DNA from: Apostichopus japonicus
Lineage: Eukaryota; Echinodermata; Holothuroidea; Aspidochirotida; Stichopodidae
NCBI RefSeq assembly: GCF_037975245.1
Contig: NC_092565.1
Coordinates: 9,024,999-9,088,998, forward strand
Direction: 5' to 3'
DNA length: 64,000 nt
The translations under genes were made by a program, and so were the position numbers. The notes beneath the pieces are model-generated. The model was given only the letters and a program-made list of their open reading frames with translations. It was not told the origin of the DNA and made no database searches. Shown here one piece after another: positions 11,155 through 37,798 of the stretch (its first letter is position 1; each line of letters begins with the position of its first letter).

Positions 11155-11156
11155 GT

Positions 11157-15160: not shown

Positions 15161-15233
15161 TGGAAGTGCAGGGCATCGATCCCCGTAACTCTCGCATGCT
15201 AAGCGAGCGCTCTACCATTTGAGCTACACCCCC
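15161..15233 (-). tRNA. tRNA-Ala(AGC), copy 78
   Basis: Variable loop AGUUA but full-length acceptor, unlike copies 27 and 34. Confidence 0.75.
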
Positions 15234-15339
15234 GTTTCTTAGTGATTTAACAAACATAATCACTGCTAAAGATATAACCAGACTAGACAAATAAATATGA
15301 TAATAATGAGGAAATTATGAAATAAAAGAATGGAATATT

Positions 15340-15412
15340 TGGAAGTGCGGGGCATCGATCCCAGTACCTCTCGCATGCTAAGCGAGCGCTCTACCATTTG
15401 AGCTACACCCCC
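15340..15412 (-). tRNA. tRNA-Ala(AGC), copy 79
   Basis: CUGGG T stem. Confidence 0.7.
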
Positions 15413-15518
15413 GTTTCTTGGTGATTTAACAAACATAATCACTGCTAAAGATATAACGTTCCTAGACAAATAAATATGATAATAATGAGGAAATTATGAA
15501 ATAAAAGAATGGAATATT

Positions 15519-15591
15519 TGGAAGTGCGGGGCATCGATCCCCGTACCTCTCGCATGCAAAGCGAGCGCTCTACCATTTGAGCTACACCCCC
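15519..15591 (-). tRNA. tRNA-Ala(TGC), copy 80
   Basis: Intact. Confidence 0.85.
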
Positions 15592-15697
15592 GTTTCTTGG
15601 TGATTTAACAAACATAATCACTGCTAAAGATATAACCAGACTAGACAAATAAATATGATAATAATGAGGAAATTATGAAATAATAGAATGGAATATT

Positions 15698-15770
15698 TGG
15701 AAGTGCGGGGCATCGATCCCCGTACCTCTCGCATGCAAAGCGAGCGCTCTACCATTTGAGCTACACCCCC
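15698..15770 (-). tRNA. tRNA-Ala(TGC), copy 81
   Basis: tRNA intact, but the usual TTTT stop 12 bases downstream reads TATT. Confidence 0.8.
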
Positions 15771-15876
15771 GTTTCTTGGTGATTTAACAAACATAATCAC
15801 TGCTAAAGATATAACGTTCCTAGACAAATAAATATGATAATAATGAGGAAATTATGAAATAAAAGAATGGAATATT

Positions 15877-15949
15877 TGGAAGTGCGGGGCATCGATCCCA
15901 GTACCTCTCGCATGCTAAGCGAGCGCTCTACCATTTGAGCTACACCCCC
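15877..15949 (-). tRNA. tRNA-Ala(AGC), copy 82
   Basis: CUGGG T stem. Confidence 0.7.
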
Positions 15950-16050
15950 GTTTCTTAGTGATTTAACAAACATAATCACTGCTAAAGATATAACCAGACT
16001 AGACAAATAAATATGATAATAATGAGGAAATTAAAAAAGAATGGAATATT

Positions 16051-16122
16051 TGGAAGTGCAGGGCATCGATCCCCGTAACTCTCGCATGCAAAGCGAGCGC
16101 TCTACCATTTTAGCTACACCCC
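16051..16122 (-). tRNA. tRNA-Ala(TGC), copy 83, weak
   Basis: Short acceptor, C13 to A in the D stem, variable loop AGUUA, and a spacer with a small deletion. Confidence 0.5.
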
Positions 16123-16228
16123 GTTTCTTAATGATTTTACAAACATAATCACTGCTAAAGATATAACCTGCCTAGACAAATAAATATGATAATAATGAGG
16201 AAATTATGAAATAAAAGACTGGAATGTT

Positions 16229-16301
16229 TGGAAGTGCGGGGCATCGATCCCCGTACCTCTCGCATACAAAGCGAACGCTCTACCATTTGAGCTACGACCC
16301 C
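16229..16301 (-). pseudogene. Decayed tRNA-Ala copy 84, anticodon now TGT
   Basis: Acceptor pairs 5 and 6 are lost, and the anticodon loop UUUGUAU would read as a threonine anticodon. G3:U70 persists. Array-edge pseudogene. Confidence 0.75.
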
Positions 16302-16407
16302 GTTTCTTGGTGATTTAACAAACATAATCACTGCTAAAGATATAACCAGACTAGACAAATAAATATGATAATAATGAGGAAATTATGAAATAAAAGAATG
16401 GAATATT

Positions 16408-16460
16408 TGGAAGTGCGGGACATCGATCCCGAGCGAGCGCTCTACCATTTGACCAATACC
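16408..16460 (-). pseudogene. Truncated tRNA-Ala copy 85
   Basis: T arm runs straight into the D-stem side: the anticodon arm is deleted and the acceptor is eroded. Confidence 0.75.
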
Positions 16461-17230: not shown

Positions 17231-19088
17231 TAGCGAAATACATATTGAAAAGATCCATACCTCTTTGTAGTGCAACAGGCAGATGTTGTGTAGAGAGATG
17301 ATCAGCCCATTTTCATTATTTGTCTAAGAATTATCCAGCTGCACTATACCTGAAGGGAGAGTGAATTTTCTGTAACTTCTCTACTTGATGCTGTTGGACG
17401 ATATATTTCACCATATTCTTCCAGTTCTTTCGATCTTGGCTCTTGTATACAAGCTTTTGTTACTTTGCGTCGCGAATGAAGTAGGCCTATTCCCCCTCCC
17501 TCACCCACCATCGTTGCCACCTTTGAAATCATGTTTACTTCGCTGAGATTGACTAGGATTGACTGTTATTGACTAGGATGCAGGGTTACCAAGGAGGAAA
17601 AGCCTTTGTGACTCTGCTTCCTAGTTAAAGAGGGTCGGATAATCCAGGTTTTATCGATAGATGCAGCTTACTACTGCTTAACCCGACAGTCCATGTCAAA
17701 GATAGTGTAGCTATACATATCGGATTATATTCGTATATTTTGGACATGTGAGTAGGAGGGAGACATCGCAAGCAAACATTATCTTTTTTATGAATAGCGC
17801 CATACTTCGTATTTAAAAATAATGGCGCTATTTATCGTTTAAGCCCTGAGCCGTATACTAGCTATAACTTATCTATGTATGGTTAAGTTAAAGCAACTAA
17901 ACCTGCTAAAAGAATTGTACGTCAAACTGACGAATGTTTCGTCATAATTATTTAGTATATGTGTGTAAGAAAATGAAAATGAAAAAGTTAATCGTTGAGT
18001 TGTTTTAAGATGGGGGCGGGCAACAGATATATTTTAGCCTATAAAAATGTCCTAGCCTACTTTTCCAACAAGCATCAGCAATAAACTATAAGGCCTACTC
18101 TTCCTTTAAAATCTGGTGGAGTTATTATTTTTATTATAAATTCAGTTCTATATTGTCCCGACACTGGTCGGGAAAGGACACCCCGACCTAATCGCCATAG
18201 CAAGACAATGTCAAGCGAGCGTGGAGGCGCTGCAGGCGGCAATTCCACCACCAATTAGCATTGGTCTAACATTCCCAGATGAAATGACAGTTTTTTAAAT
18301 AAAAATTTCTTGTTCAAAGTCACCCTATAAAGGCAGGGACCGGAAGGACTTGGTTGTGGGTCATCGGACTTAAGATCCAAGGTGGTCGTTTAAACGACCC
18401 AATTGGGATGGCCTTATAATCTGTTACAGAACTGTGTCCCGGAAAAGGGTTCTAAGGGGAGGACTCCAAGGGGAGTCTCCCTCCCCTCCCATCCCCTCCC
18501 CTCGATCCACTCTCCCCTCCCCCACCACACTCCATTTTTTATGGGAAGTGATTCAGTGTGCATACATGAAAACGGTGCTTTGTTTTGAAGTAATTTTATG
18601 TTAAAGTATTCTGCAGAGTTTATGAAAATATGATTGAAATTATTATATGCCGTTAGTCACCGCAAAAAATAAGTATTATAAGTAAGGTGCATTGTTTGAC
18701 AATACCGGCCTGCTGTACCCCTGACTCGCCTTAACTGGTGCTGTCATAGAAATTGAATGCGAGTGGCAATAACAACAACGCCAGTATCTTCTGTACACAG
18801 AATACTTAAACAAATACCGCCACACAGACAAGTCACCACAATAAATAAGTACGATTGTGAAGGTACGGTGCATTGTTTGAGAAGCACAATTTTGCAGAAG
18901 AGGTTATAGCGCTTACACAGGTTAAATCTCTGACCAAGGTGGCTAAATCCTGACGAGACCAAAATCACAACGTTGCACCACGGCGCACACACACAGAAAT
19001 ATTTTCAGGTTCTCTGTACGCATTGACTTTGCACAGGAATGAGATCTCAAAAGAAAATGAAGTTCGTGATATTGATTCAACACCATGT
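17231..19088. other. Intergenic, no gene seen
   Basis: Contains the perfect palindrome GGTCGTTTAAACGACC at 18384-18399, a pyrimidine-rich stretch at 18470-18535, and an imperfect direct repeat of about 47 bp at 18654-18700 and 18828-18880 (both contain GGTGCATTGTTTGA). No conserved protein segment recognised. Confidence 0.6.
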
Positions 19089-20177
19089 TCGTGAGGCGTT
19101 GCAAATGTTCAAGGCCCCCAGTCCCAAGCCCCCCATGGTATGGTACTCATACTTCATGGACGTCTAGTTGGTACATACGAAATTTGGGTCAGGACTTAGT
19201 TTGGGTCAAATCCTTCATTTCCATGGCGCACGGGGCCCGAAACACATGCCAAATATGCCAATTTTGTTTTGGACTTAGAAAAAAAATGAAACAGCTCCCA
19301 TTGACTTTGTGTTAGCTCCGTGAGGCGTTGCAAAAGTTCAAAGCCCCCAGTCCCAAGCCCCCCACGGTATGGTACTCAAACTTCATGGACGTCTAGTTGA
19401 TACATACGAAATTTGGGTCAGGACATAGTTTGGGTCAAATCCCTATTTTCCATGGCGCACGGGGCCCGAAACACATGCCAAATATGCCAATTTTGTTTTG
19501 GACTTAGAAAAAAAATGAAACAGCTCCCATTGACTTTGTGTTAGCTCCGTGAGGCGTTGCAAAAGTTCAAGGCCCCCAGTCCCAAGCCCCCCACGGTATG
19601 GTACTCATACTTCATGGACGTCTAGTTGGTACATACGAAATTTGGGTCAGGACTTAGTTTGGGTCAAATCCCTATTTTCCATGGCGCACGGGGCCCGAAA
19701 CACATGCCAAATATGCCAATTTTGTTTTGGACTTAGTAAAAAAATGAAACAGCTCCCATTGACTTTGTGTTAGCTCCGTGAGGCGTTGCAAAAGTTCAAA
19801 GCCCCCAGTCCCAAGCCCCCCACGGTAAGGTACTCAAACTTCATGGACGTCTAGCTGGTACATACGAAATTTGGGTCAGGACTTAGTTTGGGTCAAATCC
19901 TTCTTTTCCATGGCGCACGGGGCCCGAAACACATGCCAAATATGCCAATTCTGTTTTGGACTTAGAAAAAAAATGAAACAGCTCCCATTGACTTTGTGTT
20001 AGCTCCGTGAGGCGTTGCAAAAGTTCAAAGCCCCCAGTCCCAAGCCCCCCACGGTATGGTACTCATACTTCATGGACGTCTAGTTGGTACATACGAAATT
20101 TGGGTCAGGACTTAGTTTGGGTCAAATCCCTATTTTCCATGGCGCACATGCCAAATATGCCAATTTTGTTTTGGACT
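19089..20177 (+). repeat. Left arm satellite, 229-bp unit, about 4.8 copies
   Basis: Unit starts at 19089, 19318, 19547, 19776 and 20005, beginning CCGTGAGGCGTTGC. The fifth unit lacks the GGGGCCCGAAACA segment and stops at GGACT. Alternate units share variants (AAGTTC/ATGTTC, ATACTTC/AAACTTC), a two-unit higher-order pattern. Confidence 0.9.
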
Positions 20178-20253
20178 GAACAACTTCTGAATCTTACGCT
20201 AACTTTATTATTTTTGTATCGTACGGAAGCGTAGAAAGGACATTGCGTTGTTG
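20178..20253 (+). repeat. Left arm inner segment
   Basis: Single-copy sequence joined to the satellite (GAACAACTTCTGAATC onward), repeated inverted at 34028-34102 with about two differences. Confidence 0.85.
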
Positions 20254-21018
20254 ACTTGCCTACACACTTCGTATTCTGGAGTTGTCAAGATGTTATAATG
20301 CAATCGAAAGAAAGGATGTGACCCAAACGTTCATGAAAATGATAAAGCGGCCCGTTCCAATATCGCTATGGAAGTTCGTTAATATGTATTTCAAGATATA
20401 GATTCTAACCGAACCAAGCTTTACTTTCTGCAATATCGTTCTGTTTAAGTAGAACCAATTCCGGAAAGCGTTTGGGATTGGTACCTTGCGGCTCTGAATC
20501 TACATTGGGAATGTTTTTATTATTTTTATTGTTATAGAATAAACGTACAATCAAACGAAAAATGTCATACTCATAACTGTAATGCAAATAATCTATTCAT
20601 CTTTCCATGCAAAAAAAAAAATGATAAAGTGATATAAATAAACCAATTATGCAACTTCATCTCTTAACCTCAATTAATACATCTTTGTTGCTGCTGCATT
20701 ATATTTTATGTGAAATAGATCTTTACATGAATTAAAGATTTTTGACCAACATTGATATGAAAAATCTGTAAGTAAAATGACATTATACGTAATGACATTA
20801 ACACAATTTTAACACTGCTTAGCTGCAGGTCCCCCGTAAAGCACGTGATGATGTTTGCATCACATGATGAACGTATTATCCAAACACTGGAGGGTATCAT
20901 CGGAGCCACCCGACTCATTGTTGCCTGCTGGTGAAGCAAGTTGTAATGGCTAGCCATACTCTAAAGACAGAAATATGTATGTGAGTTCGATCATGGTAAA
21001 ATTTAAAATATTAATTGG
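20254..21018. other. Element interior, no gene seen
   Basis: AT-rich; short open frames only. The two arms stop resembling each other at 20253 and 34028. Confidence 0.5.
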
Positions 21019-21132
21019 AATATAAATTATTTAAGTAATACATCATACGGCTATGGAAATTAAGTTCATATCAAATTTACATGAAACCGTTACAAATTAC
21101 ACACCAAACCCATTGCTTGGTGATTAGTGGAT

Positions 21133-21217
<85 letters not shown>

Positions 21218-21299
21218 GTTCCTTGAACAAGGAAGGAGACATATTGTAAAGTTACAACAGAAGGAAATTCAAACTGAAACTATCACCTAAAGTGTCCTT
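21019..21299. repeat. 288-bp direct repeat, copy 1
   Basis: Matches 21307-21602 (start to start 288 bp). Each copy has a (TA)n core followed by the near-palindrome TTCCTTGAACAAGGAA. Confidence 0.9.
21135..21218. repeat. (TA)n microsatellite
   Basis: About 40 TA dinucleotides with one TG interruption. Confidence 0.95.
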
Positions 21300-21306
21300 A
21301 TCCGTG

Positions 21307-21428
21307 AATATAAATTATTTAAGTTATACATCATACGACTTCGGAAATTAAGTTATATCAAGTTTACATCAAACCGTTACAAATTACACCCACAACCCAT
21401 TGCTTGGTGATGATTGGATGGTTTGAGA

Positions 21429-21523
<95 letters not shown>

Positions 21524-21602
21524 CCTTGAACAAGGAATGAGACATACTGTAAAGTTACCGCAGAGGGAAATTCAAATTGAAACTATCACCTAAAGTGTCC
21601 TT
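21307..21602. repeat. 288-bp direct repeat, copy 2, overlapping the transposase stop
   Basis: Its right end includes the last codons and stop of the transposase gene (AAAGTGTCCTT), so copy 1 is a duplicated gene 3' end plus downstream sequence. Confidence 0.9.
21433..21520. repeat. (TA)n microsatellite
   Basis: Uninterrupted TA run in repeat copy 2. Confidence 0.95.
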
Positions 21603-24600
21603 TTGCCGTGGCATTAAGAATGTCAAAGTTCAACTTTACGTTAATTACCTCTTTCACTGGTGCTAAATGTGAATTTTTATTGAGCAGCTTTATCATCTGT
21701 CTACCAACTTTTCTGTAGTTCATATCATGAGTCTTACTATGTCGACCGTCTGTTGCTACTTTTGCATGAGCCATCTCGTGTACTAGTGTGTCAAAGAGCG
21801 AAATGGGAGATTTATGTGCCCGACCGTTAAGTAAAATCAAATCAAAGTCTTTAATGCCTGAAACTGCTTGTGTTAATCCCTTGATGTTCATAGATATATG
21901 TTCTGGCAATCTTTCTACTACTGCTAACTTTTCTGTTGCTTCGGGTAATGTGTTATTAAGGGCTATACGGTTAACAAAATTGTACAACTGTTCTGAAGGG
22001 GCCTGCCATTTGTGAATACCATAACGTAGCTTGAACTCTCTGAGGTCGTGGGATGAATGGATGCTATCCATTCTCTTTTTGCTTGCTTTCACTTTGTGCT
22101 TGCTTAGCCTTCTCTGACAGTAATGACAGTGATATTCTCTTTTAGGAATTCGTCCTATGCATGTTTCGTGGAACCAATCTTCACACACGACACATTGTGC
22201 CATTTTCCCCCCATCATCTGGCCTTCTGCAAGTGCAATATATCCTTTCCGTCACAACCCGTAAGCGTTTTTTCTTAACGGTACGTGTTGTAGATTTTATA
22301 CCAAAAGGTGTCATTTGCCTATTGGAAAGGTTTTCAAAAAGACCCTGCCAGATGATGTCCTCGTCATAATGAAGTTTAGTGGGATCTTGTCCTGAGCAAA
22401 GTGAAGCAGCGAAAGCAAGGGCAAAAACCCCACAAGAAGAACCGCTTTTCTGTTGTGTAACATTCATTACATGGAGAAATATATGGTCATCTTTTGTCTG
22501 CAAGAGACAGGCAGCAGCTTTCACGATATCCAGTGGGTACGATAGTCTCTTAGGCACCTTACTATCAAAAATACGTACATTTGGGCCTGTCATGCCGATG
22601 TTGCTGAGAACTATCCAATGGGAATTTGTCAAGTTTACTACCTGGACAAATTCAGCTGATTCTGCCACGAACCCAGAACATTGCATAAGTAATGTATCTT
22701 GCAAACCTCCAACCCCGGAAGCTTCCTTTAATATCTTCTGCCCAGCATTAATGACCAAATCGTTCAACCACTTCCTTTCCAGTAGTATCAGACGTTCAGC
22801 GTCACTTAGCCCAAGATGTGGTAACCACATTGTGGGCTTCGCTTTTTTTGTTTTCCTTGGTTTACATTTGTTTTCTGTATCGGGCTCAGCTCTTCTCTTT
22901 CTAGTGGATGTATTTGTGTCTGTTACATGTTGTGTTGGTGTTTGTGAGTCTGCATGACTACCAGTGTTCTCATTTCGATCCTGTTCTTTATCTGTACAAA
23001 AGTTCCCTTCCATATCTTTCAATGGTTTGGCAAAATCAATTTCTACTTTACCGATGGAACTGAAAGTCAAAGGATTGCCCATATATTTTCGCAAATTTTG
23101 TAACTGTAGCTTGTTAATTTGCCTGTTTCTGAGGTCCAAAATGTTCCGAAATAAAAAGATGTACTTGACTGGTGACATTTGATTCATAAAATAGTTACTT
23201 TTGTTGATTTCACTATGTAATTGCTCCTGTGCCTGAGTGTTCACTTTTCCGAACAGCTCTGGTACAAACTGTATTCTACGTAGAATTTCAAATTCGCCGC
23301 TAGTGTTTTTTTCGTGCAGCCTGTCGAAGAGGCAATAATGTTCGTTAGAACCAGTCACTGGATGGACATGGCCATTAGAATCAGGAACAGATTTATGTTC
23401 ATTAAGCCAGGGCATATTCTTTACAAAATTGCCAGACTCAACCAGCCTTTTTGTCGCTACTGACGGTGCGGCGAGCATCCCGTTATTCGGACTGAACATT
23501 CCAGGGAATCTCTTGTTACCATGCGCAACAACCATATGTGCCATATCAACAATGACGACATTGGGAACATATTTCATAGATTTAATCAAATCAATAACAT
23601 CGCGTGGACTTTCAGCACGCAATAAAAATTTTGCAGCATATACAACTCCATGCGGGCAAACCATTGACCCCCATCCACCAGTGGAACCCTGTAATTTTGC
23701 AAACACTTTGTTAAATTTTGAATTATCCTTGACCAATGTATCCCGAATTTTCCTAATAATGTCTAGTTTTGACATTTTGGATGTTCCTCTAATTCCAACA
23801 TCTCTGCCCACCTGCTTGATGTATGCAACGGTACTGCCATGTAAAATTTCGATTAGCCGCTCTTGAGTGAATTCACGGGCATCGTTTTCCAATAAACCGT
23901 TTCCTCTGTGAATTTTTCTGTGTTCAGTGTTCAGAATTGTTCTACCCTTCCTTGTGTTACTCCCTATGTATGGTGACCAATATGTGTACGATGGTGAAAT
24001 GTCGTATGGATTTGTTTGAGAATGGCCCAGCAATCCTAAAGCTAATACGTTTTTCTCTACATCCTCCCAAAATTGCTCACAATCTACGGTGTCGTTCTCC
24101 TCTGATTCACTTGGCAATTCTAAGTTTGACACATCGCAACGAAATGCACCTTTCTTGTCAATATCCAATATAACTATTTCTGGGTGATATCCACAAAGAA
24201 CACAGTGAAAGTGGTATGACCTCGTGCAAAGGGCCTGAAAATGTAAAAGGCTATTAATTACATTCTGTGGTCGAACGTTAATATCCAGCTGCTTATTAAT
24301 TAGTTCTGTATGACGTCCCAAAGCAACCGAACATTCAAGCCCTTTCTCCAAACGATCTAGCATTTCTAACGCAACCAAAAAGAAATCGTTAAAATTGTGA
24401 ACGCCCTCATTAAATTCTTGATACCTAAATGGTAAATTACATTCCGGACAAACCTTGCAGTATGTTACAATACCATTGTCCAGGCCATGCGAGGTCAAAA
24501 GAGTTGCCTTGTCCGTTATTTTGATGGGTTTTGATAGTTGGTGTCCACACGATGAACAGTGTGTTTCTGTGGGAATAAATTCAGACGGATAACTACCGCT

Positions 24601-26533
24601 CCTTTTTATATATGCATGAGGAAGTGGCCATGGAATACTTTTATTCTGTTTTAGATATGAGCACATTGATTTTAAAATGTCGTTTTCTACAGGAGGGTAC
24701 ACTAAATCACCAATTAGATTTTCGTCTTCCTCCAATTCTATTGTGGGGAGCAAATCACACTCTTTGAGGTACCATATACACATTCCTTTGTGGACACACG
24801 ATCTACTCTGCTTACAACAAGCACAGTTTAAAACGGTCCCATCTTTGTCAAAGGTAACGACGCATCTCCCAAGACGGGCATAGTAGTCGGTTGCGTTGTT
24901 AAACACAGAAAAGTGTTGGTATCGGCTTTCTAAGATATGCGGGAATGGAACAATCACTGGAACACCTTTTAAACTTGCATCTTTAATTAACAATTTCATA
25001 TTTTGTATAGTAGTTTGCGTGAGAATTTTATGAGTGCCATCATGTGACAACTCTTTCAATACAGCCTCGGAAAGAGTTCTTATCTCAGGGTGAATGTCAC
25101 ACGAATCTACCTTCCGTAAATGTTCACATTGGTATGACCTGAAGTTGCTATTTCGTGCCAATTTTATTTGAATCATACACTCTCTATGTTCACAAACGAT
25201 AACTGGATTTACGTCATGTAATTTCCTTTGTACATGTAGTGGGTAGTCAACACCCCTCATAGTTTTACGGACTAAGAATATAGAATTTAACTGATCCACA
25301 CATACACCACTAATCTGGATGTTAACACCATGTTTTGTTCTCATGTGTCTATTAAGATTTATTTTCAACATTTGTAAGCCACATTCAGAACAATTCGTTC
25401 GAACATGACTCCGTCGCTTTGTTCTATTTTTTGTAATGCCACTGCATTTGCTATTTTTATTGCCACTTCCAACGAATTCCTCTTCACGATTATCATGACT
25501 ATCACCACTCCTACCCTCGCTACTTACATTTTGGTAACCACCAGCATCACTTGTCTCACTACCAGCAACATCACTACAATGTTCACTGTCAACATCACCT
25601 CTATATTCTTCGTCACTATTATACCTAATGCGGTTGTCTCTTTCTTCCTCTTCAATGAGTTCCTCTTCCTGATTACCATCACTATCACCACTCCTACCCT
25701 CGCTACTTACATTTTGGTAACCACCAACATCACTTATCTCACTACCAGCAACATCACTACAATGTTCACTGTCAACATCACCTCTATATTCTTCGTCACT
25801 ATTGTACCCAATGCGGTTGTCTCTTTCTTCCTCTTCAATGAGTTCCTCTTCCTGATTACCATCACTATCACCACTCCTACCCTCGCTACTTACATTTTGG
25901 TAACCACCAACATCACTTATCTCACTACCAGCAACATCACTACAATGTTCACTGTCAACATCACCTCTATATTCTTCGTCACTATTGTACCTAATGCGGT
26001 TGTCTCTTTCTTCCTCTTCAATGAGTTCCTCTTCCTGATTACCAACACTATCACCACTCCTACCCTCGCTACATACATTTTCGTACTTACCAACACTCTG
26101 ACTATTACCGGCAGCCTTATCCCCATTGTCAATATCGCTACTATTATCACACTTAGTATCCCTTTTGCACCCAGGTAAGGAATCGTATCTGTTGGCATTA
26201 CCTTGGCAAATACTAGCATGGTGAGTGAAGTCAACTCTCCGTTTCAGAACACCCTTACACAGGTAACAATGGTAGTGACATTCTGGTATGTTTCCTTTCC
26301 CGCATGTCTTATTTTCAGTTATACAGTTTCTTTTACACGGTACCGTTAACACATTCCCTACTTTTATTCCTTTTTCAATATGATAGTTACTTAAATGACG
26401 TTTTAATTTCCATACAGCATTAAAATACTTGCCTGGGCAAAGGTCACATGGGCATCCCTCTCTTCGTTCTTTCTTCGTCCATGGTCCGTGATTGTCCATC
26501 CATTTCCCCTCAGATCCACTCAGAATATGGTAC
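21586..26533 (-). CDS. KDZ-type transposase with ULP1, PHD and SprT-like domains (main exon)
   Basis: Seen: one open frame, numbered here from the Met at 26499 (1637 residues). C2H2 finger (C18, C21, H35, H40); acidic 61-residue repeats, about residues 137-339; second C2H2 finger near 369-389; cysteine-rich segments; DDE-like core with D779 or D781, D985 in VVIVDMAHM and E1092 in QEQLHSEIN; ULP1/C48 cysteine peptidase with H1294, D1312, Q1349/1350 and C1356 in SSCGVFA; PHD finger C1422-C1461; SprT-like HEMAH (H1574, E1575, H1578) with H1591 as likely third zinc ligand. Known: this core resembles KDZ transposases, some of which carry ULP1 peptidases. Inferred: it mobilises the surrounding element by cut-and-paste, while the peptidases and PHD finger act on SUMO, chromatin or DNA-bound proteins. 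The exon probably starts at a splice acceptor (TTTACAG) just above 26533. No internal stop or frame break is seen, so it may be active or recently active. Confidence 0.85.
25485..26090 (-). repeat. In-frame 183-bp coding repeat
   Basis: About 3.3 tandem copies of a 61-codon acidic unit (GDSDGNQEEELIEEEERDNR and EEYRGDVDSEHCSDVAGSE), spaced exactly 183 bp, with few differences between copies. Confidence 0.95.
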
Positions 26534-27232
26534 CTGTAAATAACAATTACAATTTTACAAAAGCAATATCCAATTACACAATACATGGAACACATCTCAG
26601 ATGCTGGTTTATTTATGTGTTTATTCACCATGCACGATATGGCCAGAAATTTGCAGGTGTGTGTGTGGGGGGGGGGGGACGGAGCAGAACTCAAAAGGTG
26701 CACTAAGAGTATTATTACACTCAAATGACTGTGATGTAAAAAGCAGATTTTGGCCCAAAAATTCCTCTTGCGTTGCATACAATAAAATCATAATAAAAGT
26801 ATTGTATTACTTATCACACAAACTTTCAGAGAAAGATTGAGAAGGGTCGCTTAGCTTCCTCCAAGCTGAGGGTTTTAACGATAGTTTCTGTTTTTAGTTC
26901 AATTTTATTTTTCGGGGTACTCAAAGGGGTGGAGGAGGGGGTTGGGTTCCCTCCCATTGATCCCCCATAGATACGTCTCTGCAGAATGCTCACATAAAGT
27001 TCACAGGTTTTAAGTTATTTTTACATAAAGCATGTTACAAGTTTTGTGTGCTCAGCACCTTTGAATTTCTCCTAAATGATGCTCTCCTTTTAATTTTTTT
27101 GCTGAGGTGGGGGTGGGGGTCGATTTTTGCCTTTGCCCAACGACTTTCGCTCACTTAGGTGTTTGGTCCCTACAAGCTTATCATCTCTGAAAACGTCAGT
27201 TATCATTGTAAATCACAAAACCATAGTCTTAC
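26534..27232. other. Intron of the transposase gene
   Basis: Noncoding in this model. Contains a short G run near 26669. Open frame on the minus strand continues to 26778 but with low-complexity, non-conserved sequence. Confidence 0.55.
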
Positions 27233-27312
27233 CGTTCTGTATCCTGGATCTCAGCAGGTCTTGATTTTGATGTTTGCTCTGTTTTCTCAAGCTTCTGTCT
27301 TACCTCTGGTGT
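27233..27312 (-). CDS. Transposase gene, small internal exon
   Basis: 80 bases between an acceptor (ACTTACAG) and a donor (GTAAGA). It encodes TPEVRQKLEKTEQTSKSRPA then EIQDTE, entering in phase 0 and leaving in phase 2, exactly what the main exon at 26533 needs. Charged, no known domain. Confidence 0.6.
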
Positions 27313-28082
27313 CTGTAAGTATGAAAGCATGTACAATTCTGGTAATGAAACTTCTTGAACAAGAAAGCAATATCATCGTGCATGGTAACTGTAAGAGGCT
27401 TATGATAATAAGGTTTTCAAGCCAAATATATTGTTTGGTACAAATTTTCAGAGATGGGTTAAATTGCATCTAAGACCTGCTTTACTTCAGAAGAGCAATA
27501 ACTAATATTAACCAGCAACATAAGCCGATTGAAGGTGATGGGCGGGATGCCCTGCCCCCACAGAAATGTGGTGCCTGAGCTGCTACCAAAAAACTAGAGC
27601 ACCAAAGTTGCAGTATAGAGCTCATACCATACATGGCTTTTTTAAACATTTTTTTCACATAAGATACTAACATGAACTCAATTATCATTTAAATAATCAT
27701 TTTAAAGGTTTCTTGGTAATATTTGGGAGATATCTTAAATAAAAAAAAAAATAAAAAAAAGTGCAGTATTTTCATACAAAGACTCAGAAGAACCCGGATG
27801 ACCTGCGTTCCGAAATTATTGAAGGCCTTTATAGACTAGGCCTATTGGTCAATTTTTCTATGACCAATATTTATCATATCCAATTTGAAACTGCAGGACC
27901 CCCCCCCTACCCCCCCAAATTGACCAATGTAGAAATTTCTTCATCATTGTTTCTCTTTTATGCCACCCCTTCTCCTATGAAGTTTGCACCACAAAATGTT
28001 TTTAAAAAATGACCAGCATATCAAGCATACATACATGACAACACAACATATTACATATAGTTGTGTGTTTCTTTCAACTTAC
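27313..28082. other. Intron of the transposase gene
   Basis: A-run at 27738-27762 and C-run at 27899-27917; no coding segment seen. Confidence 0.5.
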
Positions 28083-28235
28083 GGATGCGCCCCTGAACTT
28101 TTCTTGAGCGGCGTGGACAAGCCTTTTAAAATCCTTTCTGTCTGCCTCTACTTTTGGTACGGTGCTAGAAAGGTTGTTGGTACCAACTACCAAATACACC
28201 ATCGTTGGTTTACATCCTGAGTAAACCTGTATCTC
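28083..28235 (-). CDS. Transposase gene, exon with SGNH-hydrolase-like segment
   Basis: 153 bases, 51 whole codons, between a pyrimidine-rich acceptor (TTTCATCGACAG) and a GTAAGT donor, phase 0 to 0. The peptide contains PTMVYLVVGTNNLSS, like the G-x-N block of SGNH/GDSL esterases, which occur in several animal mobile-element proteins. The GDS and C-terminal D-x-x-H blocks are not seen, so this is either a partial fold or needs further exons. It could belong to another gene on this strand. Confidence 0.6.
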
Positions 28236-31200
28236 CTGTCGATGAAAGGGAAAGAGGTGTTATTGTCTAAAGACACTGAAGAACATCAGCCATGGACATA
28301 ATTACATGCAAATATCCCTCTTGTCAGCAATTATGACTGTTTGAACCTTGTCTTTTTATTATTACTATAAAAGCATATTTTTTTTACTGTTTCTTTAAAT
28401 TATCTTTTTGATTTCCATAATTTGTCGAGAGTCAGCTTATATAGAATAGTATATAAAACACACATTAAGTTCGCTATTAGCATGTGTAACCCATAGCAAT
28501 ACCACAAAGCCATAATCAAGTATCGTTTTTGTTTCATTATATTGTGCTGCCGGCTCAAAGCAGCTTTACGCGTCCTTTTCATATGAGTTTCTCAACCTCA
28601 CTGACTCATCAAATTTGTCATAGTGACAAACATTACTAGCCTTTACTAACACTTTAAAATGTAGCATAATAGTGGAAAAAATTTCAAGGTTGTTTTTCTC
28701 GAATACATATTCCCCAATTAAACCCGCCCATATGATTTAACTCTGAACGTCATTGAACAATACGGATTAAAACATCATGATATATTTGTATACATTGTCT
28801 ATTTTTAGCAACGGTTCATAACCAAACATGCTAGCTATGTACTGATTGGATAAATTCAAATTAGTTGGTTGTAGGAACTGTAGGAATTTGTCCACAGACA
28901 CTTTTAATCATTATTAGAAAGAGTCCTTAATTACTTGCCAATTAACGCTATTGGCAGGGCACAAATTTAAACTTGTATTACAGTAAGAATATCAAAACAA
29001 GTGGCTGTTTTCAGTCACATTACCTATATACATGAATTTGTTAATATAGGCCTATATATAATTTCCTACATATAAAGGTAAGACAAGCATTTGTAACCAG
29101 CAATTATTTGGAGATGGATATTGTATTGTTCTCAACCTTTAATCACATCATGGCTTGGTCACATATCTTAGTATAGTAGCACAGGATGGAAACAAAAATG
29201 TGAAATATTTAATGTGGAATAAATTTGTTTAAATTGGCAGGTCAGATAAGATTTCATACCAGGGCTAACTATATTTTTTTTTCACTGCCAAATGTACCAC
29301 ACTTTACCAATGAAATCAAACGAGAACATTATTGCTTATAGTTATATCAATGAAAGTCTGTATTTATGATATCGAAAAGATTTAAAAAGCCATTGAAATC
29401 ACTAAACTACCATTGTTTGTTTTTAATCAGCATAAAATTCTACACTTGAAAACCAAAAATTGTATTAATCATTACGATTTCTATACTTTCCCTATTTACT
29501 TGCTAAGGAAATTTTCCCTCTACAGTCAACCGTATATAAGCCTTAAAATTTAACTTTCTCGCAAAATGTTGGAAGATTTAACATAATTTGATTATATGCA
29601 AAATTTGAGAACTTAGTTGAAAATCATACAACCTAGTTAGAAAACCTTTCACAATAACATTTTTTTTAACACATTCAATATATTCTTAAGAAAGAAGGAT
29701 TATGCTTGATACAACCTGGCAGACGATCAATCAACATGAAATTGCTCAAAGCAGGGGCCCATGTAGAAACTCCCATCACAAACTGTATGTCCAACCCTGT
29801 TTCTATCAAATGGTCTGCTTCTCCCCTATATATACTATACCCACCTGCCAGGTGAAAGGTCTCTCTCTGTCATGTGACCACAACATTTGGGTTGTAACCT
29901 AAAAGTACCATTAATGAACTCCAATTGTGTTCTTCAAAAAGTTTTAGAGATGTATCACAGAATTCAACAATTGGTTCTCACAATCAGAATAATTGATAAA
30001 TTCAAGCTCATAGTACTTGATCAACGTGTAAATTTATGTTATGAAATCACTTGAAATAACTTTTACTGTAGGGGGTGAATGTAGAATTAACAGATCCACC
30101 AGAAAGTTGATACACGGGAAATTTCACAAATTCGGAAAATTTCCACATATATTATTCGCGGAAACGACAAATACTGTATTGCAGTTCTGTAGTACAGTTC
30201 AACACACAACATCTCGTTAACAGATAATCTGTCATTACCATTGTCTTTACCTTTCTTTAATTTGCAGTAATGCCCCCCCCCCCCCCCGCTGTAAAACATT
30301 CTTTATTAACTTTCTCTGTGTGGTGAACATTGCATAATTTGTTTCACAACAACAACAATGAAAAGTATACGACAATTCTTAGATCCAGTGCAATCCAAAT
30401 TTTCCCTATACAGGTTAATGCTGAGCCTACTACATATTGTTTGGCGGAATATTAATGTGCTCAGGTCATTCCAATTTAATAACGAACAATTTGCATTTCC
30501 TACCTGCAACCATGGAAGTACTTGCATGCTTCAACACAGGTTGCCTAGAACGCAATAACATGAACCCACTTACGTCTAAGTTATTTGTCACACGATATTT
30601 CATGGTTTCCCAACGCGTCTAAATTTAGAGCGGCATAAAGTGTTACCAGAGACATGTGACAAAAAAAAAACCGCTAGATTTGCCACAATAAAACAACATA
30701 AAACGCTAGATATAACATTTCTCAAACTTATTTATAGTTTTCCATTATTATTTGCAATGATTCATATGATAGGCAGTCTAGTGATCATGATTAATGACGA
30801 GTTAAGACGGTTTATCATTATCAGGAAATGAACCAGTAGACTAACATTTGATTAAACAAACATACTTATTCAGGCCTAAAAAGAACACAAGTGTAAAGTC
30901 CCTCGTAACAGTTTACGCAATATTATAGTCTAAGGCAATAGCCGCAAAATCTATAAACAATTTTATTGGAATGCTTATGGTTTGGTCTCGAAAAATTTAG
31001 AATACAAGTAATTATTTTTTGGAAATAACAACTTTGGACGAAAACGCTAGATTCCGCGAAATTTGAAGGGAAAAAGGTACGCTATAGAACCCTAAGAAAG
31101 TATGAGATGCTACACACAGAGTACAAGTAATGGATGAAGAAAAAAATCTAAATGTAACCGGCAGTATGAAACATACGGTTGCGATTCGGAATATGACGGG

Positions 31201-31482
31201 CTATCAAATATAAGTCGAAAAAGTTAAGTCGAATTATAGTTTTTAATGTTAAAGATAAAGTTATCGAAAGTCATAAACATGACAAAAAAAGCGCAGTAAA
31301 GTGTGATAATAATTTTGTTATTAAGCGATACGTGGATCGAAACACTGCCTATACTGTAAAGTTTTCTTTTCTAGATATGCAGGCTGCAATTTATTTTTTA
31401 ACTGAGTGAGATTTTTTGTGTGACATTAGGTAAGTCAAAAATGATCACTTAAAAAATAGAAGATATGTATTGAAATGTTTAC
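28236..31482. other. Intron or intergenic interior of the element
   Basis: AT-rich with a C run at 30271-30288. A 41-base exon-like stretch on the minus strand near 30510-30550 (acceptor GTTCTAG, donor GTAGGA) does not fit the phase of its neighbours. No conserved protein recognised. Confidence 0.4.
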
Positions 31483-31671
31483 CTGGTCTCCTCTTCCCCG
31501 TAGCACAATCGAGCGATTTTGTTTTCCGTTTATCCCGAAAGGATACCTACGGGTCTTTCCTCTCTTTCCCGTTCCATGCCGGCCGAAATCGGGCAACGCC
31601 CTGTTAGAGCACCTCCCGGTTGTTGCTCCTATGTTAAACACATGTCGAAACATTTTAAAGTCAAGAAACAA
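31483..31671 (-). CDS. Possible first coding exon of the transposase gene
   Basis: ATG at 31671, 63 open codons, then CAG followed by a GTAAAC donor in phase 0, compatible with the exon at 28235. Much more GC-rich than its surroundings, and basic (RHGTGKRGKTRRYPFG). A TATA box lies 91 bp upstream. No homologue recognised; intermediate exons may exist. Confidence 0.4.
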
Positions 31672-31743
31672 ATGCGAAACTGTTGAAAAAGCTTAGCACA
31701 TGCGAGGCAGTACGAGATGAAGATTCAAGAAATCTGAGAAAGA

Positions 31744-31855
31744 TGACGTGTTTTACCTTCCTATATATACAGAGTGAGTTAGTCGTAGCCCACGCTGCTG
31801 AAAAATAAGTCGTATAGTTTATGTTTTAGCACGATGGAACAATCAGCCAATCAGA
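31744..31855 (-). promoter_or_regulatory. Putative TATA/CCAAT promoter
   Basis: TATATATA at 31762-31769, CCAAT (plus strand) at 31847-31851 about 80 bp further upstream, and a TGACGT half-CRE at 31744-31749. Position relative to the ATG at 31671 fits a Pol II core promoter reading leftward. Confidence 0.4.
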
Positions 31856-32349
31856 GTGAATGACATCACACGCGGTAGTAACCAGAAATGCGTCTTGCCA
31901 ACAAATTTAGCACGCTAACAAAAATCATGTCCCTTTTATTTTACACACTGACCACATATTGATCAATAACTGAACAACACTTCTTTCATCACCAACGTTT
32001 ATCTCTACTTTTGGATTAAGAACAAATTCTTACAACAGGAAGTGAAAGCGTCTACACTTGGGCGTGCACACTACCTGTTTACACCCACATAACAAAAGAA
32101 TGATGTGTCTTAATTTGTAGGCAAACATCATTTTACCACCGCTGTTACGTAATCACAAGAGTTTCCATAGTTTTCACTTAAATATGAAATCGCCACAGTT
32201 GGAATCTATATATTACTATCCAGAGTCAAATTATGGGCTATGATTTCAAAGAATCGTAACTCTTACACCAAGTGAAGCACTGGGATAACACAGAGTCACC
32301 TCTTGGCGGTCTCTGGTTTGCTTCATGTAGAATATGTATAACTAAAATT

Positions 32350-32810
32350 AAAAAAGGCAGATAAGATCTCTTGAAGAGTTTCGGCATCCAGTATGTTGGT
32401 GAAACAAAAAACATCCCCAAAAAGCGATTCTATGGTCACAGATCCACAGTGGCTTATGCTCCCCTCCCCCTTCCCTTCTCCCCCTGGTTACCGTCATTCT
32501 CTTGACTCTCTTCCACCTTTTTTCTCCACACCTCCCCGTCTTTGTCCTTCTGCTTCTGGTTTATTCCATACCCGCTTCCCTTAATCCTCCCTTTGTCCAT
32601 TCACAATTTATCTCCGTACCTCTCCTCTGGCCGTGTAAATGTATTCGTTATAATCCTTCCTTTGTTCACAAATCCTCTTTCACCTTACTCTTTTGTGTTC
32701 TCCCTACTCATTAACCTGTCTGTACTCTGTGCTTGTATTTGTCCCTTATTTTTTCCTTCAGCCTTTGAAGAATATCCTGTTAGGATCGAAACGTCAGCCC
32801 CTTAACTTTT
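32350..32810 (+). mobile_element. Penelope-like element 3' fragment with hammerhead-like motif
   Basis: 32380-32460 encodes FGIQYVGETKNIPKKRFYGH, the GIY-YIG endonuclease motif (IQYVGET, R, H) at the C-terminus of Penelope-like reverse transcriptases. About 300 bp downstream, 32765-32795 has TTGAAGA, a five-pair hairpin ATCCT-GTT-AGGAT, then CGAAACGTC, resembling the hammerhead ribozyme core that Penelope-like elements carry. Truncated relic. Confidence 0.7.
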
Positions 32811-33619
32811 ACATATTGTTATTACCAATATCACTTTATTAACACTGTTCTGCTGTTCGTTATTACGAAAAAGTTTGAAAGACGTATACAATCAATCACC
32901 ATCCGATTTCTTTCCATGACTGTAACATCAATACTTTCTGTGAACAAACTAGGTGGATACATGTCTTATGTAACCTCACATTGGAAATTACGTTTCTGTG
33001 CAGCATAACATTTAACTTTTATTTACACCACAACTAAGTGATTAACAAAGCCGTTAAACATGTTGCAGAATCACAAATACGCAAAATTCTTAAAAATAAT
33101 AATTTAAATAATAATTTGTAAAAAACAAAACGAAGGCAAAGGCAACTTGGCTATCTTCGTGCAATTGCAATTTTCCCCCTCATCTAAGCTATATAATTCC
33201 TTCCCATCGTAATACATGACCAAACCCCTAACCTCCCCGGATTCGAGCTAGTCACAATTTGATTTCAAATCCCGCAAGTCAAAATTTGCCAAGACGGGAT
33301 TTCACGCAATAATTTCAGCGTGCAAGTTCAATGAAACAGATATTTGGGATGTGTAGCGATTAATGACTTAACGATTGTATTTGGAATTAACGTATAGGAA
33401 AAAGCCACTTGCATTTATTCTTATTTAGTTATCCTGTCTATTATCCATCTTATCATTACGTAAATTTCCTAGTCAGTATTTTCTTTTATGAAATAAAGGA
33501 ATGAAAAAAAGAATACTTGTGCGAATTCTTTCAATGTTTTCGTTCATTCCTTCTGTAGCCACCACAATGTGGAATCCAATTTCACCACCGCCTTTTGCTC
33601 CATCTTTCCTACCATGTTA
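32811..33619. other. Spacer between the two Penelope-like fragments
   Basis: AT-rich, no gene or clear repeat seen. Confidence 0.4.
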
Positions 33620-33965
33620 GCACCCATGTTACTCCCCTACCCCCCCCCCCCCCCCAATATATGTTCCCCAAACCCTCTCTTGACTATCTTCCACCTTTTT
33701 TCTCCACACCTCCCTGTCTTTTCCTTCTTCAGTTTATTCCATACCCTCTTCTTTTAATCCTCCCTTTGTCCCTCCACAGTTTATCTGCTGTACCTCTCCT
33801 CTCCCCCTGTAAATTTCTTCGTACTCTCACTTCCTTTGTCTACTAATCCTCTTTCATCTTACTCTTTTGTGTTCTCCCTACTCATTTACCTGTGTGTACT
33901 CTGTGCTTGTATTTTTCCCTTGTAAATTTTGTCATCCAGCCTCTGAGTTTTGACAAGTTGCCGAA
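33620..33965 (+). mobile_element. Second Penelope-like 3' fragment
   Basis: Aligns with 32480-32770 (shared TTCCACCTTTTTTCTCCACA and TCCCTACTCATT blocks) but ends before the hammerhead-like motif. Contains a C run at 33638-33654. Confidence 0.65.
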
Positions 33966-34027
33966 CGAAGTGTGCAATACGCAGTTTTCAGAACGTATTG
34001 ACATATTTTATTAAGTGTGTGCAGAAC

Positions 34028-34102
34028 AACAATGCAATGTCCTTTCTACGCTTCCGTACGATACAAAAATAATAAAGTTAGCGTAAGATTCAGAAGTTGT
34101 TC
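34028..34102 (-). repeat. Right arm inner segment
   Basis: Inverted copy of 20178-20253, joined to the satellite at the same base. Confidence 0.85.
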
Positions 34103-37100
34103 AGTCCAAAACAAAATTGGCATATTTGGCATGTGCGCCATGGAAAATAGGGATTTGACCCAAACTAAGTCCTGACCCAAATTTCGTATGTACCAACTAG
34201 ACGTCCATGAAGTATGAGTACCATACCGTGGGGGGCTTGGGACTGGGGGCCTTGAACTTTTGCAACGCCTCACGGAGCTAACACAAAGTCAATGGGAGCT
34301 GTTTCATTTTTTTTCTAAGTCCAAAACAAAATTGGCATATTTGGCATGTGTTTCGGGCCCCGTGCGCCATGGAAAATAGGGATTTGACCCAAACTAAGTC
34401 CTGACCCAAATTTCGTATGTACCAGCTAGACGTCCATGAAGTTTGAGTACCTTACCGTGGGGGGCTTGGGACTGGGGGCCTTGAACATTTGCAACGCCTC
34501 ACGGAGCTAACACAAAGTCAATGGGAGCTGTTTCATTTTTTTACTAAGTCCAAAACAAAATTGGCATATTTGACATGTGTTTCGGGCCCCGTGCGCCATG
34601 GAAAAGAAGGATTTGACCCAAACTAAGTCCTGACCCAAATTTCGTATGTACCAACTAGACGTTCACGAAGTATGAGTACCATACCGTGGGGGGCTTGGGA
34701 CTGGGGGCCTTGAACTTTTGCAACGCCTCACGGAGCTAACACAAAGTCAATGGGAGCTGTTTCATTTTTTTTCTAAGTCCAAAACAAAATTGGCATATTT
34801 GGCATGTGTTTCGGGCCCCGTGCGCCATGGAAAATAGGGATTTGACCCAAACTAAGTCCTGACCCAAATTTCGTATGTACCAGCTAGACGTCCATGAAGT
34901 TTGAGTACCATACCGTGGGGGGCTTGGGACTGGGGGCTTTGAACATTTGCAACGCCTCACGGAGCTAACACAAAGTCAATGGGAGCTGTTTCATTTTTTT
35001 ACTAAGTCCAAAACAAAATTGGCATATTTGGCATGTGTTTCGGGCCCCGTGCGCCATGGAAAAGAAGGATTTGACCCAAACTAAGTCCTGACCCAAATTT
35101 CGTATGTACCAACTAGACGTTCACGAAGTATGAGTACCATACCGTGGGGGGCTTGGGACTGGGGGCTTTGAACTTTTGCAACGCCTCACGGAGCTAACAC
35201 AAAGTCAATGGGAGCTGTTTCATTTTTTTTCTAAGTCCAAAACAAAATTGGCATATTTGGCATGTGTTTCGGGCCCCGTGCGCCATGGAAAATAGGGATT
35301 TGACCCAAACTAAGTCCTGACCCAAATTTCGTAGGTACCAGCTAGACGTTCATGAAGTTTGAGTACCATACCGTGGGGGGCTTGGGACTGGGGGCTTTGA
35401 ACTTTTGCAACGCCTCACGGAGCTAACACAAAGTCAATGGGAGCTGTTTCATTTTTTTTCTAAGTCCAAAACAAAATTGGCATATTTGGCATGTGTTTCG
35501 GGCCCCGTGCGCCATGGAAAAGAAGGATTTGACCCAAACTAAGTCCTGACCCAAATTTCGTATGTACCAGCTAGACGTCCATGAAGTTTGAGTACCTTAC
35601 CGTGGGGGGCTTGGGACTGGGGGCCATGAACATTTGCAACGCCTCACGGAGCTAACACAAAGTCAATGGGAGCTCTTCATTTTTTTACTAAGTCCAAAAC
35701 AAAATTGGCATATTTGACATGTGTTTCGGGCCCCGTGCGCCATGGAAAAGAAGGATTTGACCCAAACTAAGTCCTGACCCAAATTTCGTATGTACCAGCT
35801 AGACGTCCATGAAGTTTGAGTACCTTACCGTGGGGGGCTTGGGACTGGGGGCCATGAACATTTGCAACGCCTCACGGAGCTAACACAAAGTCAATGGGAG
35901 CTGTTTCATTTTTTTACTAAGTCCAAAACAAAATTGGCATATTTGACATGTGTTTCGGGCCCCGTGCGCCATGGAAAAGAAGGATTTGACCCAAACTAAG
36001 TCCTGACCCAAATTTCGTATGTACCAACTAGACGTTCACGAAGTATGAGTACCATACCGTGGGGGGCTTGGGACTGGGGGCCTTGAACTTTTGCAACGCC
36101 TCACGGAGCTAACACAAAGTCAATGGGAGCTGTTTCATTTTTTTTCTAAGTCCAAAACAAAATTGGCATATTTGACATGTGTTTCGGGCCCCGTGCGCCA
36201 TGGAAAAGAAGGATTTGACCCAAACTAAGTCCTGACCCAAATTTCGTATGTACCAACTAGACGTTCACGAAGTATGAGTACCATACCGTGGGGGGCTTGG
36301 GACTGGGGGCCTTGAACTTTTGCAACGCCTCACGGAGCTAACACAAAGTCAATGGGAGCTGTTTCATTTTTTTTCTAAGTCCAAAACAAAATTGGCATAT
36401 TTGGCATGTGTTTCGGGCCCCGTGCGCCATGGAAAAGAAGGATTTGACCCAAACTAAGTCCTGACCCAAATTTCGTATGTACCAGCTAGACGTCCATGAA
36501 GTTTGAGTACCATACCGTGGGGGGCTTGGGACTGGGGGCTTTGAACATTTGCAACGCCTCACGGAGCTAACACAAAGTCAATGGGAGCTGTTTCATTTTT
36601 TTACTAAGTCCAAAACAAAATTGGCATATTTGGCATGTGTTTCGGGCCCCGTGCGCCATGGAAAAGAAGGATTTGACCCAAACTAAGTCCTGACCCAAAT
36701 TTCGTATGTACCAACTAGACGTTCACGAAGTATGAGTACCATACCGTGGGGGGCTTGGGACTGGGGGCCTTGAACTTTTGCAACGCCTCACGGAGCTAAC
36801 ACAAAGTCAATGGGAGCTGTTTCATTTTTTTACTAAGTCCAAAACAAAATTGGCATATTTGACATGTGTTTCGGGCCCCGTGCGCCATGGAAAAGAAGGA
36901 TTTGACCCAAACTAAGTCCTGACCCAAATTTCGTATGTACCAGCTAGACGTCCATGAAGTTTGAGTACCTTACCGTGGGGGGCTTGGGACTGGGGGCCAT
37001 GAACATTTGCAACGCCTCACGGAGCTAACACAAAGTCAATGGGAGCTGTTTCATTTTTTTACTAAGTCCAAAACAAAATTGGCATATTTGACATGTGTTT

Positions 37101-37273
37101 CGGGCCCCGTGCGCCATGGAAAAGAAGGATTTGACCCAAACTAAGTCCTGACCCAAATTTCGTATGTACCAACTAGACGTTCACGAAGTATGAGTACCAT
37201 ACCGTGGGGGGCTTGGGACTGGGGGCCTTGAACTTTTGCAACGCCTCACGGAGCTAACACAAAGTCAATGGGA
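34103..37273 (-). repeat. Right arm satellite, 229-bp unit, about 13.8 copies
   Basis: Inverted relative to the left array. The innermost unit has the same internal deletion as the innermost left unit. Unit boundaries recur every 229 bp from 34271 to 37247, with one 228-bp unit. Ends 526 bp before the REEP start codon. Confidence 0.9.
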
Positions 37274-37798
37274 ATTTTTTAATGATACTATAACGCACTG
37301 CACAGATCTCGGACTTAGTTTATTTTGCAGAGATTTAACCCTCGTGAGCGCTATAACCCCCTCTCCAATTTTGACGATCAATTTTTACTCAAAACTTCTA
37401 CACAGACAGTTAGTGATAAGCGTAAGCCTATAGGCTGCACATACCGACGACATACATAGAGAATGTCTGCAATATTGTGATCGACTCTGTATCCAGAAAA
37501 AGACGAGTACTTTTTATGCGCACAAACTCGTGTAGAAAGGTTTGCCTCCCGTATTTTCGAAAATGGCTTGGCATTTGAATTTTAATCAGTGACGAAGTAT
37601 TGCGTTGGCCTAACGTTACACATAACAGTGTTTGTAAAATTACAGTATAAGCCTGTTGGCTAACCCTACACTACTGAAGTACAGTACTGTAGGAATAGCC
37701 TTTTGGCTCAACGTCGATACCAAGAATTGGTGTGATTCTGTAATATAAATGTAACAACTTATCGACGACAGTGGACAACCTAGGCTAGTCCGTCCAAG
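37274..37798. promoter_or_regulatory. Upstream region of the REEP gene
   Basis: 525 bp between the foldback arm and the REEP start codon must hold the 5' UTR and core promoter unless further noncoding exons exist. No clear TATA box seen. Confidence 0.4.

What the first reader, a model, noticed from the sequence alone, without database searches (positions are those of the whole stretch)
21586..26533. Giant transposase fused to two proteases of unlike mechanism plus a PHD finger
One uninterrupted frame joins a KDZ-type DDE core, a ULP1-like cysteine peptidase with its His-Asp-Gln-Cys set, a PHD finger and a C-terminal HExxH SprT-type metallopeptidase. ULP1 domains are known in KDZ elements; I cannot confirm the SprT plus PHD combination as described. 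It suggests an element that edits SUMO marks, reads histone tails and clears DNA-bound protein.
Basis: partly seen in the sequence, partly recalled or inferred. Interest (0 to 1): 0.9.

Follow-up and report, generated by a model that had tools for sequence, protein, structure and literature searches.

The report
Transposase carrying a SprT-type protease
An echinoderm genome holds a large jumping gene whose single enzyme is fused to a SUMO-type protease, a histone-reading finger and a metalloprotease of the kind cells use to clear protein stuck on DNA, a combination we did not find described.

Summary
The frame is real: 1,730 codons, minus strand, 21586-26778, inside a complete 18,471-bp DNA transposon, 18895-37365, with an imperfect 38-bp inverted repeat, an 8-bp target duplication and inverted arrays of 229-bp repeats. 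The host is an echinoderm by its mitochondrial code. ULP1 (best solved match SENP1), PHD (Spp1 type) and SprT-like are supported by family profiles; the window protein alone is below Pfam's cut-offs for all three. Pfam's KDZ model does not see the core; the KDZ link is the CxC4 cluster, the 8-bp duplication and a borderline motif match. The ULP1-PHD-SprT order is kept in relatives 34-66% identical. One lineage (L2/L3) has a decayed SprT, so it is dispensable or supplied in trans. ULP1 with PHD is known from Ginger1; SprT on a transposase was not found in the searches made, which do not cover Repbase. Best reading: a KDZ-like element that gained a protease for DNA-bound protein. Function is inferred, not shown.

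The parts
18895..37365 (.). complete element, 18,471 bp
   Evidence: TIR and TSD located
18887..18894 (.). left target-site duplication, 8 bp
   Evidence: identical to 37366-37373
37366..37373 (.). right target-site duplication, 8 bp
18895..18932 (+). left terminal inverted repeat, about 38 bp, imperfect
37328..37365 (-). right terminal inverted repeat
19090..20147 (+). left array of 229-bp repeats (4.6 copies)
34133..37273 (-). right array of the same 229-bp repeats, inverted (13.7 copies)
21586..26778 (-). 1,730-aa open frame, transposase fused to ULP1, PHD and SprT-like domains
26206..26448 (-). two N-terminal C2H2-like fingers (26380-26448 and 26206-26280)
   Evidence: motif by eye on the translation, coordinates
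25470..26085 (-). acidic 61-aa (183-bp) repeats, 3.4 copies
25330..25392 (-). third C2H2-like finger
   Evidence: motif by eye, coordinates
24772..24864 (-). SWIM-like CxC..CxH finger
   Evidence: motif by eye, coordinates; name recalled
24343..24591 (-). CxC4 cysteine cluster (residues 730-812)
   Evidence: Pfam PF18717 34.8 bits, cut-off 26.9
24142..24171 (-). first catalytic Asp candidate (D872 or D874)
   Evidence: invariant in 3 of 3 copies; inferred
23734..23856 (-). SAP/Rho_N-like segment inside the core
   Evidence: weak Rho_N match in 2 of 3 copies, below cut-off
23518..23559 (-). second catalytic Asp candidate (D1078)
   Evidence: invariant; KDZ D2 block aligns here as rank 1; inferred
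23209..23241 (-). catalytic Glu candidate (E1185)
   Evidence: invariant; KDZ E block aligns here as rank 1; inferred
22339..22830 (-). ULP1-like cysteine peptidase, residues 1317-1480, H1387 D1405 Q1442 C1449
22114..22245 (-). PHD finger, residues 1512-1555
21634..22023 (-). SprT-like metallopeptidase, residues 1586-1715; HEMAH at 21766-21780, third His H1684

Best explanation
It is the single large gene of an 18.5-kb cut-and-paste DNA transposon of an echinoderm, best placed as a divergent, CxC4-bearing relative of KDZ elements. Shown by sequence: a bounded element with TIR, 8-bp duplication and inverted subterminal arrays; relatives at other loci with the same domain order. Inferred: zinc fingers bind the subterminal repeats; the core cuts and joins with an 8-bp stagger; the PHD finger, of the Spp1/PHF2 kind, ties the complex to histone H3 tails of active chromatin; ULP1 strips SUMO from the transposase or from proteins at the site; the SprT domain digests protein held on DNA, most likely the transposase complex itself after strand transfer, so that host repair can finish. 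The SUMO and SprT activities would then act in one pathway, as in cellular repair of DNA-protein crosslinks.
For: Element borders and 8-bp duplications in 4 of 4 copies whose two ends I located (window, L4, L5, L2; that of L2 read by eye from the printed flanks). L4 and L5 are 99.1% identical over 17.4 kb on different contigs with different flanks, i.e. recent movement. Same ULP1-PHD-SprT order in window, L4, L5 and L6. Purifying selection, window against L6: pN 0.158, 0.183, 0.215 against pS 0.738, 0.811, 0.756 for ULP1, PHD, SprT. Profiles: ULP1 to SENP1 E 5e-5, PHD to Spp1 E 6e-10, SprT in 4 of 4 pieces, SPRTN the best solved match of the four-row profile though weak, E 0.05. SUMO and SPRTN/Wss1 cooperate in clearing DNA-bound protein (PMC8674535 and PMC8441304, starts of abstracts in the listing; PMC4559962 passages).
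Against: No activity, expression or structure was tested; structure prediction could not be run. Pfam KDZ does not match the core. In L2 and L3 the SprT has lost its Glu (HKIVH), its third His and its frame in both copies, so elements can persist without it. With the three-row profile an unrelated peptide scored better than SPRTN (E 0.3 against 0.54), and weak matches to other metallopeptidase families (M76, M91, M64; E 0.012 to 0.018) appear beside PF10263. The PHD cage residues and SPRTN-like role are recalled knowledge, not tests.
Confidence: 0.4

Rival explanations
1. A KDZ-like transposase in which the SprT part is an active protease but is aimed at host chromatin proteins (for example silencing factors marked by SUMO), opening the locus, rather than at the transposase complex.
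For: Same domains; PHD and ULP1 both point to chromatin.
Against: Nothing here distinguishes the substrates; promiscuous SPRTN-type proteases do not need a host target.
Confidence: 0.2
2. The SprT-like segment is no longer, or never was, a protease in the element: a structural or DNA-binding add-on, or decaying.
For: Decayed in L2/L3; L6 has a stop inside it; weakest constraint of the three C-terminal domains (pN/pS 0.28 against L6, 0.60 against L4).
Against: HExxH and the third His kept between window and L4 at 30% identity; an L2-like relic on C12 still has HEMVH and the third His.
Confidence: 0.2
3. The core belongs to a transposase superfamily separate from KDZ that merely shares the CxC4 cluster.
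For: Pfam KDZ fails on 3 of 3 copies; 69 KDZ matches in the same genome at E<=1, none of them overlapping this family's protein matches by my reading of the two lists; three pieces of a KDZ copy from L024 gave hhalign probabilities below 1%.
Against: CxC4 over cut-off at 6 of 6 matches, five of them in this family; 8-bp duplication as stated for Zisupton (PMC12730594 passage); KDZ D2 and E blocks align best exactly at D1078 and E1185, chain p 0.048.
Confidence: 0.3
4. A domesticated host gene that happens to lie between repeats.
For: Long intact frame.
Against: The frame sits inside a TIR/TSD-bounded element; related intact and broken copies on several contigs; loci with the same paired arrays and shorter inner parts.
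Confidence: 0.03

Closest known systems
KDZ (Kyakuja-Dileera-Zisupton) DNA transposons
   Same: CxC4 cluster that Pfam describes as associated with KDZ; 8-bp TSD as stated for Zisupton (PMC12730594 passage); ULP1 in some KDZ elements is recalled, not checked
   Different: Pfam KDZ core model does not match; PHD and SprT added; 229-bp inverted arrays
Ginger1 DNA transposons (e.g. Ginger1-9_HM)
   Same: C-terminal Ulp1 plus PHD on a transposase (PMC2836005 passages)
   Different: Ginger1 core is a Gypsy-integrase type; the passages seen name no SprT
SPRTN/Spartan, GCNA and Wss1 proteases
   Same: SprT-like HExxH and third-His segment; link to SUMO for Wss1 (PMC4559962 passages)
   Different: Those are host repair proteins without a transposase; the match to SPRTN is weak (E 0.05)
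Foldback elements (e.g. Tetris)
   Same: Long inverted ends with tandem repeats (PMC4079207 passages)
   Different: Tetris lacks conserved open frames and was referred to Mutator by its authors; here an intact gene lies inside

Membership tests
KDZ transposons | core matches Pfam KDZ (PF18758) | tested here: not met
   no match in 3 of 3 copies; 69 KDZ matches elsewhere in the genome at E<=1
KDZ transposons | KDZ-associated cysteine cluster | tested here: met
   CxC4 PF18717 over cut-off
KDZ transposons | 8-bp target-site duplication | tested here: met
   4 of 4 copies with both ends located; ends of L3, L6, L7 not located
KDZ transposons | collinear D, D, E motifs of KDZ | tested here: inconclusive
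   chain p 0.048; D2 and E rank 1 at the conserved acids, D1 not; single blocks p 0.11 to 0.43; one KDZ copy used
ULP1 (Peptidase_C48) | profile match and His-Asp-Gln-Cys | tested here: met
   L4 27.0 bits, cut-off 20.7; window 15.5 (whole) and 18.3 (C-terminal part), below; SENP1 alignment
PHD finger | C4HC3 zinc pattern and profile match | tested here: met
   Spp1 E 6e-10; pattern invariant in 4 of 4; below Pfam cut-off 24 in window and L4
SprT-like (PF10263) | HExxH with third His and profile match | tested here: met
   3 of 5 transposon loci over cut-off (L4, L5, C12 relic), L6 and window below; L4 whole protein 24.8, just below 25.6; 4 of 4 pieces match; third His seen in window, L4, L5 and C12, and after the stop in L6
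SprT-like (PF10263) | metalloprotease activity | not testable with these tools
   needs enzyme assay
Ginger1 | Gypsy-integrase-type core with GPY/F motif | not tested
   no integrase family is among the Pfam matches, but GPY/F was not searched for

The most novel reading that the evidence does not exclude
A DNA transposon that carries its own DNA-protein-complex protease: after strand transfer the fused SprT domain dismantles the SUMO-regulated transposase complex, making post-transposition disassembly a property of the element and not of the host. Chromatin reading, SUMO removal and proteolysis would form one built-in module.
Probability: 0.3. Interest if true: 0.85.

Novelty: new variant of a known kind. 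Interest (0 to 1): 0.62.

Why it matters
How cells take apart very stable transposase-DNA complexes after integration is, to my knowledge, an open question. If an element carries a SprT-type protease for that step, the step can be tested directly by point mutation of one motif. It would also add a metalloprotease to the SUMO and ubiquitin proteases already known on transposases, and link them to repair of DNA-protein crosslinks.

Tried and rejected
Other genes in the element: 392 frames of at least 25 aa outside the main frame were compared with the L4 and L2 elements; only repeat-array frames and matches of 13 and 18 residues came up, so no second gene is claimed. The L4-against-L2 list of the same call was cut at 4,000 characters and is not used. 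Relatives outside this genome: viral contigs gave none with two profiles; no eukaryote collection is on hand, so whether the architecture is catalogued in Repbase or found in other animals could not be tested. The core found no solved relative at E<=10. NCBIfam gave only two weak matches far below cut-off. The HExxH motif alone as evidence was rejected after the shuffle test (97 of 500). Single-diagonal tests of the KDZ blocks on separate copies gave p from 0.02 to 0.79 over 9 tests, the best place being the expected one in 3 of 9; the profile chain test was made after those and after seeing the motifs, so its p 0.048 is soft. hhalign of three KDZ pieces against the core: no match. The two founding KDZ and Zisupton papers (identifiers recalled) were not held. 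An attempt to place HMGXB3 (recalled CxC4 bearer) gave nothing relevant. dS is saturated in most comparisons, so p-distances are used.
Full report
The frame. The window's minus strand holds one open frame, 21586-26778, 1,730 aa from its first ATG. The first 90 or so residues look non-coding and are barely conserved (pN 0.66 against L4); a later start or an upstream exon is likely. The window lies in a 671.6-Mb genome. COX1 on contig C35 reads sensibly with code 9, AAA giving Asn at places I know as conserved Asn, so the host is an echinoderm; this is my reading of the translation, no database named it.

The element. The 229-bp arrays at 19090-20147 and 34133-37273 are inverted copies of each other, about 96-98% identical in the long alignments. 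Outside them lie imperfect inverted ends of about 38 bp, flanked by the same 8 bp on both sides, giving an element of 18,471 bp at 18895-37365. The L4 and L5 copies, 20.2 and 22.5 kb, have different perfect 8-bp duplications and are 99.1% identical over 17.4 kb while their flanks differ. L2 also has an 8-bp duplication, read by eye from its flanks. So 4 of 4 copies whose two ends I located show one; the ends of L3, L6 and L7 were not located, and L3 lacks its termini. L4, L5, L2 and L3 carry long tandem arrays too, but no long inverted repeat was found within each. The 229-bp unit gives 177 matches in the genome, a lower bound; paired opposite arrays are visible there on C5:8.25 Mb, C17:7.02 Mb, C10:10.21 Mb and C15:3.35 Mb. 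The C10 locus matches the window's inner flank at 93% and spans about 5 kb, so it looks like a deletion derivative. The 2.5 kb read from C5:8.25 Mb matches the window element in stretches but not the protein. No second gene was found.

The domains. Pfam on the window protein gives CxC4 over cut-off, and SprT, PHD and C48 below it; YopJ acetyltransferase (E 0.0017, also below cut-off) scores above C48 (E 0.016) over the same stretch, which I take as the shared fold of these cysteine-peptidase relatives (recalled). The L4 protein, 1,596 codons open, gives C48 27.0 bits (cut-off 20.7), SprT 24.8 (cut-off 25.6) and PHD 18.8 (cut-off 24). In the genome scan for SprT there were 7 matches at 6 loci: C14 (two exons, which I take for the host GCNA gene from recall), C12, C4 (L5), C15 (L4), C15 (L6) and the window. 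From its translation I count C12 as a relic of an L2-like element. C14 and C12 score best (37.4 and 32.7 bits); L4 and L5 pass the cut-off at 27.7; L6 and the window do not (24.2, 23.7). Aligned pieces match PF10263 in 4 of 4, with weaker matches to other metallopeptidase families beside it. SPRTN is the best solved match of the four-row profile, but only at E 0.05; with three rows it had E 0.54 and an unrelated peptide scored better. ULP1 aligns to SENP1 through His, Asp, Gln and Cys. The PHD aligns to Spp1 and PHF2; that these read H3K4me3 is recalled. L4 and L2 carry VIDLT/IIDLT strings upstream of ULP1 that look like SUMO-interacting motifs (recalled); the window protein does not.

Conservation. 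Identity of the C-terminal region to the window is 34% (L4), 66% (L6) and 39% (L2, whose frame ends after PHD). Between window and L6, non-synonymous differences per site are 0.16 to 0.22 against 0.74 to 0.81 synonymous over ULP1, PHD and SprT; against L4 the ratios are 0.53, 0.35 and 0.60, with synonymous sites saturated. HExxH is present in window, L4, L5, L6 and the C12 relic, and lost (HKIVH, with stops and no third His) in L2 and L3. L2 and L3 are 99% alike over 9.6 kb and share the loss, so it most likely came before their split. This counts against SprT being essential, unless other copies supply it.

The core. Invariant acids D872/D874, D1078 and E1185 are candidates for the catalytic triad. 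Pfam names no transposase core there in 3 of 3 copies. The genome has 69 matches to Pfam KDZ at E<=1, none overlapping this family's protein matches by my reading of the two lists. One such KDZ copy lies in L024; its D2 and E blocks align best, out of all positions, exactly at D1078 and E1185, while the best place of D1 is elsewhere; the ordered chain has p 0.048, single blocks 0.11 to 0.43. I had chosen D1078 and E1185 from the alignment before the KDZ copy was read, but did not write this in a note, and the blocks were cut by eye. I therefore call the core KDZ-like, not KDZ.

Comparison with print. Transposases with Ulp1 plus PHD are described for Ginger1-9_HM, and the Ginger authors already proposed that such proteases help repair around transposition (PMC2836005, passages). 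For SprT on a transposase I searched: 'KDZ transpos' with SprT (0 papers); SPRTN with transposase (6 papers, none on this by title and abstract start); SprT-like, transposase, metalloprotease and transposable element, three of four (109 papers, 15 listed, 15 of 15 with no SprT-like); SprT, transposase and Ulp1, two of three (90 papers, 25 listed; 2 of 25 hold both SprT and transposase, PMC5393060 and PMC3091717, which by title are on other matters and were not opened). A search for transposase, Ulp1, SAP domain, PHD finger and Zisupton, four of five, gave 0 papers. The library lacks most subscription papers, including the founding KDZ and Zisupton papers, and Repbase was not searched, so absence is weak.

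Verdict. A real, recently mobile DNA transposon family with a multi-domain transposase; the SprT part is the unusual addition. The mechanism is inference from domain identity.

Noticed in passing
window 1-16430: Tandem array, period 179 bp, with 79 tRNA-Ala genes (three anticodons) and one tRNA-Thr at its right end by ARAGORN.
   Followed up: no
window 6401-7210 and 11011-11820, minus: Two open frames of 270 codons, with the same printed translation and CCHC knuckles, 4,610 bp apart inside the tRNA array; suggests an insertion followed by duplication of part of the array.
   Followed up: no
window 61478-62376: 27-bp minisatellite, 34 copies, with a 325-codon open frame on the minus strand.
   Followed up: no
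window 21135-21217 and 21433-21520: Two long TA-dinucleotide runs just downstream of the frame, each followed by a similar stretch.
   Followed up: no
L024 (C8:30191396-30192523): A decayed copy matching Pfam KDZ, about 6 kb outside the L3 element.
   Followed up: partly
G000:C29:14745-31219: Five COX1 matches besides the C35 copy, in pieces over about 16 kb.
   Followed up: no
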